This document shows positions 1 to 19,578 of a stretch of 64,000 nt of DNA, piece by piece. The notes under the pieces were generated by a model. It saw only the letters and a program-made list of their open reading frames with translations. It did not search any database and had not been told where the DNA came from. The position numbers and the translations under genes are program-made. Position 1 is the stretch's first letter. The number at the start of each line of letters is the position of its first letter. Source of the DNA: Candidatus Limosilactobacillus excrementigallinarum (GTDB lineage Bacteria; Bacillota; Bacilli; Lactobacillales; Lactobacillaceae); contig DWZS01000003.1 in assembly GCA_019117445.1 (NCBI GenBank), positions 1-64,000 on the forward strand, read 5' to 3'.

Positions 1-25
1 GTCTGAAAATGATAAGATAGTGGTG

Positions 26-93
26 CCCATAAAGGTCCTTCTTTCTAATGGAATGTTGTAACGACACCATTAAAGACCTTTATGGGTTTTTCT
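26..93 (+). terminator. Nested hairpin followed by T-run, probable intrinsic terminator of a gene upstream of the window
   Basis: CCCATAAAGGTC (26-37) pairs with GACCTTTATGGG (75-86); inner TAATGG (46-51)/CCATTA (67-72); then TTTTTCT. Confidence 0.55.
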
Positions 94-160
94 GTCCACT
101 AAAATGTTCAACTTAAATTTTACAATCTGCCCAATAAAAAAAGCAGCTGCCCAATGACAA

Positions 161-1569: not shown

Positions 1570-2535
1570 ATGAAGAAAAAGAAGAATAAGCAACAGCATG
1601 TATGGCGGTGGCTAACAGCCATTATTGGCACTTTACTGATTATTTGGCTAGCGGTCGGTGGATACTTTTTCAAAGTCGGCATGGTGCCGGGGCATAAGTC
1701 ATTTATCAGCAGTAACCACCAAACGCTGCGCCGTTCTAATCCACTGTATCGGCAAAAGAAATGGTTTCATGATGTAAAAAAGCAACGGTGGGTAATGAAG
1801 TCCGCTAGAAAAAACTACCGGTTAGTAGCGGATTATATTCCTGCAGCTCAGCCATCCAAGAAAAGTGTTTTAATTTGTCATGGCTTTATGAATAATAAGG
1901 AAACGATGGGTGCCTATGCGGCGATGTTTCATCAAATGGGCTATAATGTCTTGCTCCCGGATGCACGGGCGCATGGAGAGAGCGAAGGTCGTTATATTGG
2001 TTATGGCTGGCCGGAACGTTATGATGAGCGCAAATGGATTAATCGGCTAATTCAAAAGAATGGTCAGGATAGCCAAATTGTGATGTTTGGGGTTAGCATG
2101 GGTGGTGCCACCACGATGATGACGAGCGGAATTAAATTACCTCATCAGGTAAAAGCCTTTGTCGAAGATTGTGGTTACACCAGTCTAGCGGCGGAACTCG
2201 ATCATGAAGCTCAGCAGCTGTATCATTTACCGCCAGTGGTTGCTAAACCAGCAGAAGCATCGCTGAGTATCGTTAACCGGATTGCGAATGGATTCTATAC
2301 AAGTGAAGCCAGTTCGGTGGATTCATTGCATCATAATAAGCGGCCAATGTTATTCATCCATGGGGCTAAGGATACGTTTGTGCCTACGGAAATGGTTTAT
2401 ACTAATTATCGAGCAACCCGGGGGTCGAAGGAGTTATGGGTAGTGCCGAAAGCTGCGCACGCCAAATCTTTTCAAACGTCCCCTCGGCAGTACCAACGGC
2501 ATGTGCAACAGTTTTTGAATCGTTACGTTCATTAA
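1570..2535 (+). CDS. Alpha/beta hydrolase with N-terminal membrane anchor
   Basis: GVSMGGA nucleophile elbow, HGFMNNKE oxyanion region, FIHGAKDTFVP; N-terminal TM; start at MKKKKNK. Confidence 0.8.
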   Translation: MKKKKNKQQHVWRWLTAIIGTLLIIWLAVGGYFFKVGMVPGHKSFISSNHQTLRRSNPLYRQKKWFHDVKKQRWVMKSARKNYRLVADYIPAAQPSKKSVLICHGFMNNKETMGAYAAMFHQMGYNVLLPDARAHGESEGRYIGYGWPERYDERKWINRLIQKNGQDSQIVMFGVSMGGATTMMTSGIKLPHQVKAFVEDCGYTSLAAELDHEAQQLYHLPPVVAKPAEASLSIVNRIANGFYTSEASSVDSLHHNKRPMLFIHGAKDTFVPTEMVYTNYRATRGSKELWVVPKAAHAKSFQTSPRQYQRHVQQFLNRYVH

Positions 2536-2553: not shown

Positions 2554-2800
2554 ATGGTCACAATTAAAGAAATCGCGCAACGCGCTGGATATTCTTCCGC
2601 CACGGTGTCCCGGCTATTAAACTCAGATCCGCGATTAGTAATTTCGGGTCAAGCTCGCGAAAAGATTCTGGCAGTGGCGGATGTATTAGGATACTGGGAC
2701 GAGCACGACCGACCATTAGGTAATAAAGAGATCGCGATTCTATTTCGAATTACCAAGCAAGATCAGGAGAATGATGTCTATTTTGCCACCCTGCAAGAAC
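2554..2800 (+). pseudogene. LacI-family regulator, 5' fragment (HTH plus linker only)
   Basis: MVTIKEIAQRAGYSSATVSRLLNSDPRL is a LacI HTH; homology stops near LQEHL and the frame then runs into GH42 DNA. Confidence 0.8.
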
Positions 2801-4592
2801 ACCTTCAACCGCCGCCATGCCAGCGTGGATGTTTAAAAAATACCCCGATGTAGCGCGGGTGGACTATCAAGGACGGCGGCATGTTTTTGGTCAACGCCAT
2901 AACTTCTGTCCCAGCTCTCCGAACTATCAACGGCTCGCTCAAAAGATCGTTGCTAAATTAGCGGAACGGTATGGTGACAATCCCCACATTGTTGCTTGGC
3001 ATATTAACAACGAATATGGTGGTAATTGTTACTGTGAGAATTGCCAAAAGGCGTTTCAAAAATGGTTGCAGCAAAAGTATCAGACTCTTGATCGCCTCAA
3101 TCAGGCTTGGAATAATAACGTCTGGAGTCACACCATTTATCATTGGGATGAAATTGTGGTTCCCAACGAACTTGGTGATGCATGGGGCCCAGAAGGCAGT
3201 CATACGATTGTTGCCGGTTTGTCGTTGGATTATCTCCGTTTCCAATCGGCTGCGCTTCAAGATCTTTATCGGATGGAAAAGCGGACGATTGAAAAGTATG
3301 ATGATCACACCCCAATTATGACGAACTTTCATAGTACGCCAAATAAGATGATTGATTACCAATCCTGGGCAGGGGATCAAGACATCATTGCGTACGATTC
3401 ATACCCGGCTTATGACCAACCAGCCTATCAACCTGCGTTTCTGTACGATTTAATGCGGAGCTTAAAGCACCAGCCATTTATGTTGATGGAGTCGACGCCC
3501 TCCCAAGTTAATTGGCAGCCGTATAGTCCACTGAAACGACCTGGACAAGTCCGGGCAACTGAGTTTCAGGCGGTGGCACATGGGGCCGATACGGTTCAAT
3601 ATTTCCAGCTTAAGCAGGCAATGGGTGGCTCAGAGAAGTTCCATGGAGCCGTGATTAGCCACTCCCAAAGGACGGACACCCGTGCGTTTCAAGAAGTTGC
3701 TCACATTGGTCATGATTTAAAACGGCTGAGTACCAAGATATTAGGTTCCAAAACGCCTGCGAAGGTCGGCATTATCTTTGATTGGAATAATTTCTGGTCA
3801 TATGAATACGTGGCAGGGATTTCTCAAGATCTAGACTATGTTGGCTCTGTTCTGGATTATTATCGGCAGTTTTATGAACGCCATATTCCGACGGATGTGA
3901 TTAGCGTAGATAACGATTTTAGCCAGTATGACTTAATTGTGGCCCCCGTTCTCTACATGGTTAAGCAGGGGCTTGCCGAAAAAATTAATGACTACGTTGC
4001 TGCTGGTGGTCATTTCCTTACGACCTATATGTCAGGGATGGTGAACGAGAGTGATAATGTCTACACTGGCGGTTATCCAGGACCGTTAAGCAAAGTGCTC
4101 GGGATTTGGGTTGAAGAGACGGATGCAATGACTCCTGGAAAGACAACCCAAGTCGTTTATGAAAAAGATGGTCTTGCTACTGATGGTCATTATTTATGTG
4201 ACCTCATTCATTTAACCAGTGACCATGCTCGTGCGGTCGCTAAATACGGTTCAGAATTCTATAATGGGGTTCCTGCAATCACGGAAAATCAGTATGGGCA
4301 AGGGACGGCTTGGTATGTCGGCAGTCGGATTGATCATGCTGGATTGAGTCACTTGATGGATGAAGTACTACAAGTGGCAGATGTGTCAGGATTAATTACG
4401 ACCCCAACTGATTTGGAAATCACTAAACGAGTGAAGGATGGTCATGAGATTTACTTTGTTCTGAACATGCGGAACGAGGAACGCCAACTACCCGCAGAGT
4501 TAGTAGATGGCTGGACGGACCTATTAACAGATGAACAATCACAACCAAAGATGATGGGTTGGGACTTACGAGTTCTTAGTAAAAATAATTGA
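2799..4592 (+). pseudogene. GH42 beta-galactosidase lacking its N-terminus
   Basis: TAAMPAWMFKKYPDVARVD...HNFCPSSPNY...WHINNEYGGNCYCENC...LMESTPSQVNWQ are GH42 signatures; first ~85-95 residues absent; ORF begins at an internal Met with no SD. Confidence 0.8.
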
Positions 4593-4601
4593 TAAAGAAA
4601 G

Positions 4602-4639
4602 AAGCAGGTAATCATTTCCCGGGAAATGATTACCTGCTT
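4602..4639. terminator. Bidirectional terminator, 38-bp perfect palindrome
   Basis: AAGCAGGTAATCATTTCCCGGGAAATGATTACCTGCTT equals its own reverse complement; lies between convergent genes. Confidence 0.7.
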
Positions 4640-4645
4640 TGTTAA

Positions 4646-6622
4646 TTAATCCAATGACTGCATGTAAACTAACTGGTCCGTTGAGACTTGTTCGTTAAGT
4701 GCGTTTGCCAAGTCAAACGAAATTTTATGCGTAGCAGCTTGTTGTTGGATATAGCTGTGTTCTGCTTGAAAGGCATTGATAAAGTAGCTAGTCATGAGAT
4801 CAGCGTTAATCTTATTTTTACGTGAGAAGATTCGGTAACGGTTTAGATAAGTTCGACGCACCGCGGCGATTTCATAAGCATTTTTCGGCGTTTGAGCATC
4901 ATTCAAAAATTTATTAACGCGTCGGATCACGATTCGTAAAATGGGTCCAATTTCATTATTAACCGCTTTAAAGTGATCTTGTCGCGCTTTTTTTAATTCC
5001 GGATTTTTATGATAAAGTTTGATTACTTTCCGCCGGGCGTGTAGCCAGTGCAGACGGTGATACAACATGATAAAAGTATCCCAAAAACCGTGCTTTGATT
5101 TACTGAAGAGGTCACGGGCCATCAGCCGCGAGTACATTCGTTCCTGCCGTTCAGTGATGACGTCATTATCGGTCAGTTCTTCAAGGGTATCTAATTCTAC
5201 TTGGTGGCACTTTTGCAAGAGATGGTTATAGGTTTCGGTATTCAGGCGTGCCCGCATGGTCATTTGACTAGCCAATTGGTCAATTACTAAGGATTTTTCA
5301 CGATTTTGTTCACCGTTATTGGTTAAATCATTAATGGCATACTGAACAGTATTGGTTAAAGCTTTGTGAAATTCGGCTTTAGAATAACTTTCTTGTTTTT
5401 GGGGAAGGAGTTTTGGAAAAGCAAAGGTACCAACAAAAAGACTAATAAGGATTACAAAGGCCGCAATCAAAATTAAAGCATTCCGCATAGCAATTCGGTC
5501 TTCGTTGACCAGTAGAGGAATGGAAAAGGCCATTGCCATAGTGATGGTTCCGTGAACACCACCAATTGCTAACAATAAGCTATCCAGTTTTTTGTCTTGT
5601 TGTAAAGCTTTGGAATGCAGACGCACAAAACCAATTTGTGACCACAAATACCTCAACCAAGTCATAACCAGATAAAGAACCAGTGCAATGCCAACAATTT
5701 TAAAAGTTTGCAGCTGTTTCATATGGCCAAGCACCATTGGCAAGCTAAGTCCCAAAAAGACGAACACAAGGCCGTTTAAAGCATCAGCAATGATATTCCA
5801 AATAGTAGTAGTAGCAATCTGCACCTTGGTCGAAGTAAGGTGGAGACGGTCATACAAGATACTGTGCATAATCCCAGCTGCTACAACTGCTAGAATACCT
5901 GAGAGGTGGAGTTCTTCGGCTATCCAATAAACGACAATCGGGGTCATCACGTTAATTGGAATAACAATCGGGGCGATATCAACGTGATGTTGCATTAGCG
6001 CGGTTCGCACGTTAATGAGCAGGGAGCCGGCAATCATTCCAAAGATAATCCCACCGAAGAAAACATACAGGAATGTCCAAATTCCTTGAGCAAGTGAAAA
6101 TGAACCAGAAGCCAGGGCGGATGAAGCGAGACTAAACAGGACGATTCCCGATGCGTCATTAAAAAGTGATTCGTGTTCGAGGGTTAAACTAACGTTTTCT
6201 GGCATTTCGACATCAGTAGTCAACGATTTAACAGAGACAGCATCAGTTGGGGTAATAATGGCAGCAAGCATGAAGGCAACGGGGAATGAGAATGAACGTG
6301 GGAGGAGGAAATGTAATCCCAGACCGAGAATAATGACTGTAAAAAGCGCCAAATAGACAGCCATCGACATCGTTCTTGACAGTCCTCGTGCGAGTTGCCT
6401 AGAGGAAGTATTTTGACCGTCGTTAAACATGAGCGGTGCGATAATCAAGAGCATGAAAATTTCTGGTTCGAGTTGAAATGTCTTTAAGTCAGGAATGATT
6501 GCTAAAACCACTCCAGCAATAATTTGATAAATTGCTAAAGGGAGGACAGGCCAAATTAAATGGATAATGTTGGCCGTAACGACGGCAACTAATAAGAGAA
6601 CAATTCCGAGAACGGTCGACAT
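4646..6622 (-). CDS. CPA1-family Na+/H+ antiporter
   Basis: Multi-TM; AAIITPTDAVSVKSL, EHESLFNDASGIVLF motifs; start taken at MSTVLGIV. Confidence 0.9.
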   Translation of the reverse strand: MSTVLGIVLLLVAVVTANIIHLIWPVLPLAIYQIIAGVVLAIIPDLKTFQLEPEIFMLLIIAPLMFNDGQNTSSRQLARGLSRTMSMAVYLALFTVIILGLGLHFLLPRSFSFPVAFMLAAIITPTDAVSVKSLTTDVEMPENVSLTLEHESLFNDASGIVLFSLASSALASGSFSLAQGIWTFLYVFFGGIIFGMIAGSLLINVRTALMQHHVDIAPIVIPINVMTPIVVYWIAEELHLSGILAVVAAGIMHSILYDRLHLTSTKVQIATTTIWNIIADALNGLVFVFLGLSLPMVLGHMKQLQTFKIVGIALVLYLVMTWLRYLWSQIGFVRLHSKALQQDKKLDSLLLAIGGVHGTITMAMAFSIPLLVNEDRIAMRNALILIAAFVILISLFVGTFAFPKLLPQKQESYSKAEFHKALTNTVQYAINDLTNNGEQNREKSLVIDQLASQMTMRARLNTETYNHLLQKCHQVELDTLEELTDNDVITERQERMYSRLMARDLFSKSKHGFWDTFIMLYHRLHWLHARRKVIKLYHKNPELKKARQDHFKAVNNEIGPILRIVIRRVNKFLNDAQTPKNAYEIAAVRRTYLNRYRIFSRKNKINADLMTSYFINAFQAEHSYIQQQAATHKISFDLANALNEQVSTDQLVYMQSLD

Positions 6623-6724
6623 AATATTAATCCTTTCTTGAATGTAATTTAGTTCTATTATAACGAAAAATGTAAAAAAACAAGCGATTAGCAACTGGAA
6701 ATTACTAATCGCTTGTTCAATTAA

Positions 6725-7069
6725 TTATTGCCTTTTAATTAAAACGCTAATTCCCATCGCCAAGTTATAGATGTAGAGAATTAAAGAAATTAAAAGAGCT
6801 AAAACCGTTAGAATGCCGAATAGCCAACCACCCGAACTACGAACCTGATCTATTCCGGCCGCACCGAGAATAAAGAAGGTTAGTAAGGCGACAATCACGT
6901 AAAGGGCGGGGAAGATCTGCGTCCAGAAAGCAGACCGCGCATGTCGAGCAACATACGGGTCTTGATGATCAACGATCCAAATGATTAACGGAAACAAAAC
7001 GGGAAGAAATAGGATACTGAGGTAAGCTAAGCAACTGAGAATCCTACTGGTTGTTGATTGATTATTCAT
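6725..7069 (-). CDS. DUF4870-like small membrane protein
   Basis: MNNQSTTSRILSCLAYLSILFLPVLFPLIIWIVDHQDPYVARHARSAFWTQ pattern; 3-4 TM helices. Confidence 0.6.
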   Translation of the reverse strand: MNNQSTTSRILSCLAYLSILFLPVLFPLIIWIVDHQDPYVARHARSAFWTQIFPALYVIVALLTFFILGAAGIDQVRSSGGWLFGILTVLALLISLILYIYNLAMGISVLIKRQ

Positions 7070-7103
7070 AATGAACTCCTTTTCTTTTAGTATACCAGAA
7101 AAG

Positions 7104-7757
7104 TTATGGGAGCATGAGCAATGTGACCTGAACAATTGCCAAACTAACGATGAGGGTGATCCAATCTCGCGTTTTAATCTGAATGTTTTGAACATGGGTC
7201 CGTGAGCGCCCCTCAACAAAGCCTTGTGATTCCATTGCTTGAGCGAGCACGTCCGACCAACTTAAAGCTGAGAGAATGGCTTTGAAGTAGAGCTGCGGTG
7301 ACCAGAAGTTGAGAGTGATTCCACGCATTCGGGCTGCAATGCAAATGGTTTGGATTGCTTGAATTGTTCGCGGAACGGTATTGAGGGCGGCTAATGTTCC
7401 ATAGGCATATTTAGCTGGGAGGTGGGCATTTTGATCTAGTGAGCGGGCAAGCTCAAGTGGAGACGTTGAAATAGTAATAAGAGCTCCTAAAAAGCAGTAG
7501 GAGTAGATCCGACTAACCATTACCCAAGCAAAGAACCAACTATGGCCTGGACTAAACCAGCGGATGGTAACTGCGATGGTTAAAGCAGGAAGCAAGGGGA
7601 TAAGTAGTAATTTCACCAATTTCCGTAGTGAACAATGATGCAAAATTAGAAAGATTAGTGCAAAGAAGATTAAGAGTAGGTTGGTGGTGATTTTACTGGT
7701 AAAAGATATTTCCAGGGAAATAATGATAATCAGTAATAATTTTAGACTAGGATTCAT
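7104..7757 (-). CDS. ECF transporter T component (CbiQ/YkoC-like)
   Basis: Multi-TM with ARMRGITL coupling motif; start at MNPSLKLLL; overlaps the upstream ATPase gene. Confidence 0.8.
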   Translation of the reverse strand: MNPSLKLLLIIIISLEISFTSKITTNLLLIFFALIFLILHHCSLRKLVKLLLIPLLPALTIAVTIRWFSPGHSWFFAWVMVSRIYSYCFLGALITISTSPLELARSLDQNAHLPAKYAYGTLAALNTVPRTIQAIQTICIAARMRGITLNFWSPQLYFKAILSALSWSDVLAQAMESQGFVEGRSRTHVQNIQIKTRDWITLIVSLAIVQVTLLMLP

Positions 7758-9132
7758 GACTTGGCCTCCCTTGATATGACAGTTGTCGACCACTCAGATT
7801 GAGATGATAATCAATTAATGAATCGAGTCCCGTTAATTGATGACTGATAATCAGAATGGTTTGGGGTAAAACCTGCTGACAGTTATGAATTAGGTCAATC
7901 ACATTAGCAATTGATTGCTGATCTAGGCCACTGAATGGTTCGTCAAGGAGTAGGAATGACTGCCCCATCATTAGCATTACCAGTAATTGGAGCTTCTTCT
8001 TTTGACCACCAGAAAGGGAGTATACTACCTGATTGGTGAGATGTTGTAAGCCTAGCTTGGTGATTGCGTCTGCTAAACGGGAGCGATTAAAATATGGATG
8101 CTGACCATTTTTTAGACTGAGTTCTAGTTCTTCCTGGACGGTTACCTTAAGAAACTGATCGTTGGCATTTTGAAAGACAAGGCCCAAGGTTTGGCCAAGT
8201 AGATGTGAAGAATAATTTTTTAAAGGACGATCAAAAAGCTGAACAGTTCCGTCAAATGGAATGATTTTAGTTAATGCCTTAAAAAAAGAAGATTTGCCAC
8301 TACCAGATTCACCGGTTAAAAGGGTCACCTTATTTTTATAGATTGTCAGTTCTGATTGCTGAATAAGCAATTGATTCTGTCGCCGTAAGGTAAAGTTATG
8401 TAATGAAATAGCAGCCGGATCGGTTAATTGAGGTAGGGTGGCTGGAACGTTATTAGGTTGATTAAATCGATCCAACAATGTGTGAGTAGCAGCTAATGAT
8501 AATGGTTGAAGATGATTATTGAAATCAATGATTAGCGGATGAAGTGAATCATATGCGGCTAAATCATGGTCGGCAATAATGATCGTTTTTCCGGTTTGAA
8601 GGAGTTTTTTAAGTTGTTGGATGATCAAAGTGCGATTATGAAAATCTAAACTCGCGAAGGGCTCATCCAAGAGGATGATTTGTGGATTCATTGCAATGAT
8701 AACGGCTAAGCTGGCGCGTTGCTGTTCACCACCGGAAAGAGTTGTGAAGTGGCGTTCAGCAAGGTGTAAAATACCGACTTCCTCTAAAGCTTGGTGAGTT
8801 AGTTGGGGAATGCGCTGAGCGGATACTTGCTGGTTTTCTAGTGCAAATTCGATTTCATGCCGTGGTGTGTCTAAAGCGAATTGTAATGCCGGGTCTTGAA
8901 ACATCATGGCACAGGTGAGATGGTCTGGGAGATTGATGATGCCTGATAAGTGTCCGCCATACTTGGGGAGTAAACCGGCAATGATTTTGAGCAGGGTGGA
9001 TTTTCCACAACCAGATTTGCCGTAAAAAATAGTTAATTGATTAGTTGGAATAGATAATTGAGAAATATTGAGAATATTTTGCTTTTTTTGATAACCAAAC
9101 TGGAGTGATTCAATTGTAATTGGTGTTGTCAT
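7747..9132 (-). CDS. ECF transporter duplicated ATPase (YkoD-like)
   Basis: Two Walker A (GKSGCGKSTL, GESGSGKSSF), two signature motifs (LSGGEQQR, LSGGQKKK), two Walker B. Confidence 0.9.
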   Translation of the reverse strand: MTTPITIESLQFGYQKKQNILNISQLSIPTNQLTIFYGKSGCGKSTLLKIIAGLLPKYGGHLSGIINLPDHLTCAMMFQDPALQFALDTPRHEIEFALENQQVSAQRIPQLTHQALEEVGILHLAERHFTTLSGGEQQRASLAVIIAMNPQIILLDEPFASLDFHNRTLIIQQLKKLLQTGKTIIIADHDLAAYDSLHPLIIDFNNHLQPLSLAATHTLLDRFNQPNNVPATLPQLTDPAAISLHNFTLRRQNQLLIQQSELTIYKNKVTLLTGESGSGKSSFFKALTKIIPFDGTVQLFDRPLKNYSSHLLGQTLGLVFQNANDQFLKVTVQEELELSLKNGQHPYFNRSRLADAITKLGLQHLTNQVVYSLSGGQKKKLQLLVMLMMGQSFLLLDEPFSGLDQQSIANVIDLIHNCQQVLPQTILIISHQLTGLDSLIDYHLNLSGRQLSYQGRPSHES

Positions 9133-9184: not shown

Positions 9185-9205
9185 GGTAATTGTAAAATAA
9201 AAAAC

Positions 9206-9288
9206 AACCTTGTGATCTCCCTTCGCTGGTCCTAACCAGAGCAGGTTCGATGGGTATTTCTCAGCCGTGCGGCACCCCAGACAAAGAT
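9206..9288 (-). ncRNA. TPP riboswitch (THI box)
   Basis: Minus strand GGGGTGCCGCACGGCTGAGAAATACCCATCGAACCTGCTCTGGTTAGGACCAGCGAAGGGA matches the THI-box core. Confidence 0.93.
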
Positions 9289-9583
9289 AATTAAATTTAA
9301 TTTTATCATACCGAAAGCAGCAATGAAGTGCAAGCGGGTAGAATAATTAACAGGCTGTGGAAAAGATGTGCACAACTCTGAGGGAGGCGTAATTGCTGAT
9401 TAGACAGCATTTGTGAATGGGAGAAAGTAATTATTAACAGGTTTCCATAAGATATTGTGGATAACTAACAAATCATCCCCAATCATTGGGGAAACGAAAG
9501 AGTAAGTATGTGAATTTGAAGGTAACGGAACGTGGTGTTTGAGAAATTATTAATTCTGATTACGAAAAACAAGTAACATAAAG

Positions 9584-19420: not shown

Positions 19421-19452
19421 AAAAACGGGTCCTCCCTATTGGTGGACCCGTT
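19421..19452 (-). terminator. Riboswitch expression-platform terminator
   Basis: AACGGGTCC/GGACCCGTT stem followed by TTTTTT on the minus strand. Confidence 0.75.
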
Positions 19453-19463
19453 CATTGTAACGA

Positions 19464-19530
19464 TGCTTATAGTCTCATATTTACGGCATGAGGTAGAAAC
19501 GTCCGACCATATTACGGAAATATATAGGCA
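19464..19530 (-). ncRNA. Purine riboswitch, guanine-type
   Basis: Minus strand TATATATTTCCGTAATATGGTCGGACGTTTCTACCTCATGCCGTAAATATGAGACTATAAGCA; C at the xpt position-74 equivalent (GACTAT). Confidence 0.9.
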
Positions 19531-19578
19531 ATATTTAATTGTAAGTATCTTAGCATGTTTGACGAACAATCTCAATAA

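What the first reader, a model, noticed from the sequence alone, without database searches (positions are those of the whole stretch)
2554..4592. Deletion joins a LacI-type regulator to an N-terminally truncated GH42 beta-galactosidase
Seen directly: a LacI HTH (MVTIKEIAQRAGYSSATVSRLL) runs ~80 codons and then, at about 2790-2805, the DNA becomes GH42 sequence in another frame (TPSTAAMPAWMFKKYPDVARVD). From GH42 family knowledge, ~85-95 N-terminal residues are missing, while the likely catalytic Glu regions (NNEYGG, LMESTPSQ) remain. The GH42 part has no obvious SD before its first Met. Inference: one deletion removed the regulator's effector domain and the enzyme's N-terminus together, recently, since the rest of both frames is clean. 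A free HTH peptide could still be made.
Basis: partly seen in the sequence, partly recalled or inferred. Interest (0 to 1): 0.6.

Follow-up and report, generated by a model that had tools for sequence, protein, structure and literature searches.

The report
Deletion-scarred galactoside operon in Limosilactobacillus
A lactic-acid bacterium has lost the middle of a three-gene sugar-use operon (regulator, transporter, beta-galactosidase) in one 3.1-kb deletion, leaving two non-functional stumps; this is ordinary gene loss, probably tolerable because a second, intact beta-galactosidase sits elsewhere in the genome.

Summary
At window 2801-2803 a LacI-family reading frame (82 native codons from 2554) passes abruptly, out of frame, into a GH42 beta-galactosidase lacking its N-terminus. 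The nearest intact relative, Limosilactobacillus coleohominis 101-4-CHN (flanks 95-97% identical), carries here a complete operon: lacI (338 aa), a GPH-family sugar symporter with a fused EIIA domain, and GH42 (674 aa). The length is not a multiple of three, so no fusion protein forms. The breakpoints share only an imperfect 8-mer: illegitimate recombination is likely. Substitution patterns show no relaxed constraint, so the deletion is recent. The deleted genes are not elsewhere in the assembly, which keeps intact LacLM, galT and galK. A sister lineage (strain An574) has the same operon broken independently by an IS insertion, a nonsense codon and a frameshift; other relatives have the site without the operon. 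Ordinary, recent operon loss; low interest. Reads were not available to exclude an assembly error outright.

The parts
2554..2801 (+). 5' stump of a LacI-family regulator gene: 82 native codons, HTH and hinge region; effector domain deleted
   Evidence: PF00356 hit; colinear with L027 2671-2918, 94% nt
2802..2853 (+). out-of-frame tail of the lacI stump, read into GH42 DNA, ending at TAG
   Evidence: ORF 2554-2853
2800..2807 (.). deletion junction: CACCTTCA, between CATCTGCA (left donor) and CAACTTCA (right donor); 3067 bp absent
   Evidence: base-by-base comparison with L027 at offsets 117 and 3184
2803..4592 (+). GH42 beta-galactosidase remnant, codons 79-674 of the intact gene; first possible start ATG 2817; first three barrel strands missing
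   Evidence: Pfam, intact L027 ORF 5752-7776, secondary structure of the model
4602..4639 (.). long inverted repeat, likely bidirectional terminator between GH42 and the antiporter gene, also present in L027
   Evidence: L027 7774-7821
1570..2535 (+). left flank: alpha/beta hydrolase, intact; next to the antiporter gene in operon-free relatives
4646..6694 (-). right flank: sodium/hydrogen exchanger (PF00999), intact

Best explanation
This is the remnant of a lacI - GPH/EIIA sugar transporter - GH42 operon from which one 3067-bp block was recently lost by illegitimate recombination between non-repeated sequences. Shown: the extent of the block, the intact operon in the closest relative, the out-of-frame join, absence of the lost genes elsewhere in the assembly. 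Inferred: no working GH42 enzyme is made, since strands beta1-beta3 of the catalytic barrel, the promoter/operator and the native start are gone; at most an unregulated LacI headpiece peptide is made. Inferred: the loss is tolerated because a separate GH2 LacLM with galT and galK remains.
For: Intact L. coleohominis 101-4-CHN locus with near-identical flanks; junction and 3067 bp, 1 mod 3. The operon lacI-GPH-GH42 recurs in the same order in about 20 Limosilactobacillus and Lactobacillus loci. No second copy of GH42, transporter or lacI C-terminus in the genome. Sixteen residues invariant in a 16-sequence alignment lie in the lost segment; strands 9-13, 38-41 and 74-78 lost. Lost promoter-like site 3727-3754 and operator 3760-3775 of L027. 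No relaxed constraint yet. LacLM, galT, galK intact. Independent breakage of the same operon in An574.
Against: No reads are available, so a collapsed assembly or strain mixture cannot be strictly excluded; the assembly has 93 contigs and is 93.4% complete. Only one genome of this exact lineage is held, so whether other strains share the junction is unknown.
Confidence: 0.93

Rival explanations
1. Assembly artefact: the assembler joined two ends across an unassembled 3-kb segment, and the operon is really intact.
For: Draft assembly, 93 contigs, 93.4% complete.
Against: The junction lies inside a contig longer than 72 kb, with no repeat beyond an imperfect 8-mer, too short for a normal assembler overlap; the missing segment is on no other contig. 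Contig breaks in this assembly fall at IS copies instead.
Confidence: 0.05
2. The truncated genes are still functional: the GH42 stump as a shortened enzyme, or the LacI headpiece as a small DNA-binding regulator.
For: Both frames remain clean and show low dN/dS against the relative, 0.094 and 0.067; both catalytic Glu are kept.
Against: Clean frames are equally expected if the deletion is recent. The barrel lacks three strands; nearly all other relatives have the full-length gene; no Shine-Dalgarno or native promoter remains.
Confidence: 0.03
3. A regulator-enzyme gene fusion producing one chimeric protein.
For: The two genes are adjacent on one strand, and lie in the same frame in the intact relative.
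Against: 3067 is not a multiple of three; the lacI frame stops at 2851-2853 and GH42 is in another frame.
Confidence: 0.005

Closest known systems
lacI - GPH/EIIA symporter - GH42 operon of Limosilactobacillus coleohominis 101-4-CHN (L027)
   Same: Same chromosomal site, same flanking genes, GH42 98% identical in protein over the surviving part
   Different: Intact; the window lacks 3067 bp across all three genes
Same operon in L. coleohominis An574 (L028/L094, a more distant lineage, GH42 about 81% identical)
   Same: Same site, also inactivated
   Different: Broken by other events: IS within lacI near codon 274, TAA in the transporter, one-base frameshift in GH42
GH42 LacZ of Lactobacillus kefiranofaciens, which co-occurs with GH2 LacLM (PMC9705900)
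   Same: Same GH42 enzyme type; the host also has LacLM
   Different: There LacZ is full length and active; here truncated
GH42 beta-galactosidase of solved structure 3tts
   Same: Closest solved relative of the intact protein (E 1e-209)
   Different: The window product starts after barrel strand beta3

Membership tests
GH42 beta-galactosidase | Complete catalytic (beta/alpha)8 barrel, PF02449 1-376 | tested here: not met
   Only profile positions 72-376; strands beta1-beta3 lost
GH42 beta-galactosidase | Catalytic acid/base and nucleophile Glu | tested here: met
   E149 and E308, invariant in alignment A1, both retained in the window ORF
GH42 beta-galactosidase | Trimerisation domain PF08532 and C-terminal domain PF08533 | tested here: met
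GH42 beta-galactosidase | Hydrolytic activity | not testable with these tools
   needs an assay
LacI-family regulator | N-terminal LacI HTH, PF00356 | tested here: met
LacI-family regulator | Effector-binding/dimerisation core, PF13377 or PF00532 | tested here: not met
   Absent from the window ORF, present in intact L027 lacI
Deletion-derived pseudogene remnant | Intact orthologue at the same site in a close relative, colinear on both sides of one junction | tested here: met

The most novel reading that the evidence does not exclude
Loss of the GH42 operon is repeated and perhaps selected in this lineage: gained once between the hydrolase and antiporter genes, then broken independently in two of the three sampled genomes while LacLM is retained in all three; the left-over LacI headpiece might still bind DNA on its own.
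Probability: 0.12. Interest if true: 0.3.

Novelty: new member of a known kind. Interest (0 to 1): 0.14.

Why it matters
It is a clean, roughly datable example of strain-level loss of a sugar-use operon in a host-associated Limosilactobacillus, with the intact version, the operon-free site and an independent decay all available for comparison. It warns that annotation of this strain should not list a working GH42 beta-galactosidase or LacI regulator here. It does not change any general understanding.

Tried and rejected
Plasmid collection: no match. Considered a fusion gene: rejected on frame. Considered recombination between repeats or an IS at the junction: no repeat beyond CAnCTnCA and no IS there. 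Considered old decay under relaxed selection: no excess of nonsynonymous change on the window's branch and no indel or stop in the GH42 remnant. Considered loss of all beta-galactoside use: rejected, since LacLM, galT and galK are intact. galK first looked N-terminally short only because the fetched stretch ended there. Literature: nothing found on this locus in L. coleohominis.

Full report
What is there. The window (contig C15 of a 1.63-Mb, 93-contig assembly) belongs to Limosilactobacillus; the closest genome found is L. coleohominis 101-4-CHN (L027 = G030), with flanks 95.0% and 96.5% identical in DNA. ORF 2554-2853 begins as a LacI-family regulator and ORF 2817-4592 is GH42 without its N-terminus.

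The intact locus. In L027 the same flanks (alpha/beta hydrolase on the left, sodium/hydrogen exchanger on the right) enclose lacI 2671-3687 (338 aa, with PF13377 effector domain), a GPH symporter with C-terminal EIIA domain (about 3808-5739; TIGR00792, PF00358) and GH42 5752-7776 (674 aa). The order lacI-transporter-GH42 recurs in about 20 further Limosilactobacillus and Lactobacillus loci.

The junction. Base by base, the window follows L027 at offset 117 up to 2801 and at offset 3184 from 2803, base 2802 matching neither. The missing block is 3067 bp, 1 mod 3, so the two stumps are out of frame. The two donor sites share only CAnCTnCA (6 of 8 bases). This fits illegitimate recombination (inference). 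Lost: lacI from codon ~83, a terminator-like hairpin after lacI (L027 3683-3719), a promoter-like site (3727-3754, 10 of 12 consensus bases; such scans give many chance hits), a palindromic LacI-type operator TTGTAAGCGATTACAA (3760-3775; 0.01 matches expected by chance in L027 at up to 2 mismatches; no match with up to 3 mismatches near the window locus), the whole transporter and GH42 codons 1-78. The reading of the palindrome as the regulator's operator is inference from its place and form.

Is the loss real? The transporter, the lacI C-terminus and a second GH42 are absent from the rest of the assembly; remaining hits are distant paralogues, at most 38% identical for the transporter. The junction is inside a contig of more than 72 kb, without a repeat. 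Reads were not available.

Consequence. A model of the intact GH42 (mean pLDDT 86.7, pTM 0.90) places strands 9-13, 38-41 and 74-78 in the lost segment, i.e. the first three strands of the catalytic barrel. Sixteen residues invariant in the 16-sequence alignment are lost. The closest solved structure is 3tts.

Age. Using An574 as outgroup, changes on the window's branch are 26 synonymous and 8 nonsynonymous in the two remnants, against 36 and 17 in four flanking genes; the relative's branch gives 22 and 7 in the same stretches. Neutral change would be about 76% nonsynonymous. With 8 of 34, a nonsynonymous share above about 0.385 is excluded at 5%, so by rough mixture arithmetic no more than about a quarter of the branch's substitutions came after the deletion. 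There is no indel or stop in the GH42 remnant. The deletion is recent relative to the split of the two strains.

Context. Relatives G033, G029 and G021 have the hydrolase and antiporter genes next to each other without the operon, so the operon is probably a gain in the coleohominis lineage (loss elsewhere is not excluded). In strain An574 the same operon is broken otherwise: an IS end with inverted repeat GGCAGATTG/CAATCTGCC and an apparent 4-base target duplication ATTA sits in lacI near codon 274, the transporter carries a TAA and GH42 has a one-base frameshift. Damaged copies also appear in L. pontis (transporter frameshift) and L. kitasatonis (transporter codon ~66 joined close to the GH42 start, many frame changes), though draft-sequencing error is possible there. 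The window's genome keeps GH2 LacLM with an EbgR-like LacI regulator, galT and galK intact, and LacL is kept in 101-4-CHN and An574 too. Co-occurrence of GH42 LacZ and LacLM, LacLM being the stronger lactose hydrolase, is described for L. kefiranofaciens (PMC9705900), which makes the GH42 operon plausibly dispensable (inference).

Verdict. It is ordinary strain-level gene loss.

Noticed in passing
window 1-131: Right end of an insertion sequence (terminal CAATCTGCC); nine places in the genome, several at contig starts or ends, and the same element interrupts lacI of this operon in strain An574.
   Followed up: partly
L028 1-4411 and L094 2150-3083 (L. coleohominis An574): Same operon independently inactivated: IS in lacI, TAA in the transporter, one-base frameshift in GH42.
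   Followed up: yes
L059 5595-7423 (L. kitasatonis) and L038 4190-4310 (L. pontis): The same operon is damaged here too: transporter codon ~66 joined close to the GH42 start in L059; transporter frameshift in L038. May be draft-sequence errors.
   Followed up: partly
window 9201-9289 (-) and 19450-19547 (-): TPP riboswitch upstream of an ECF-type ABC transporter operon, and a purine riboswitch.
   Followed up: no
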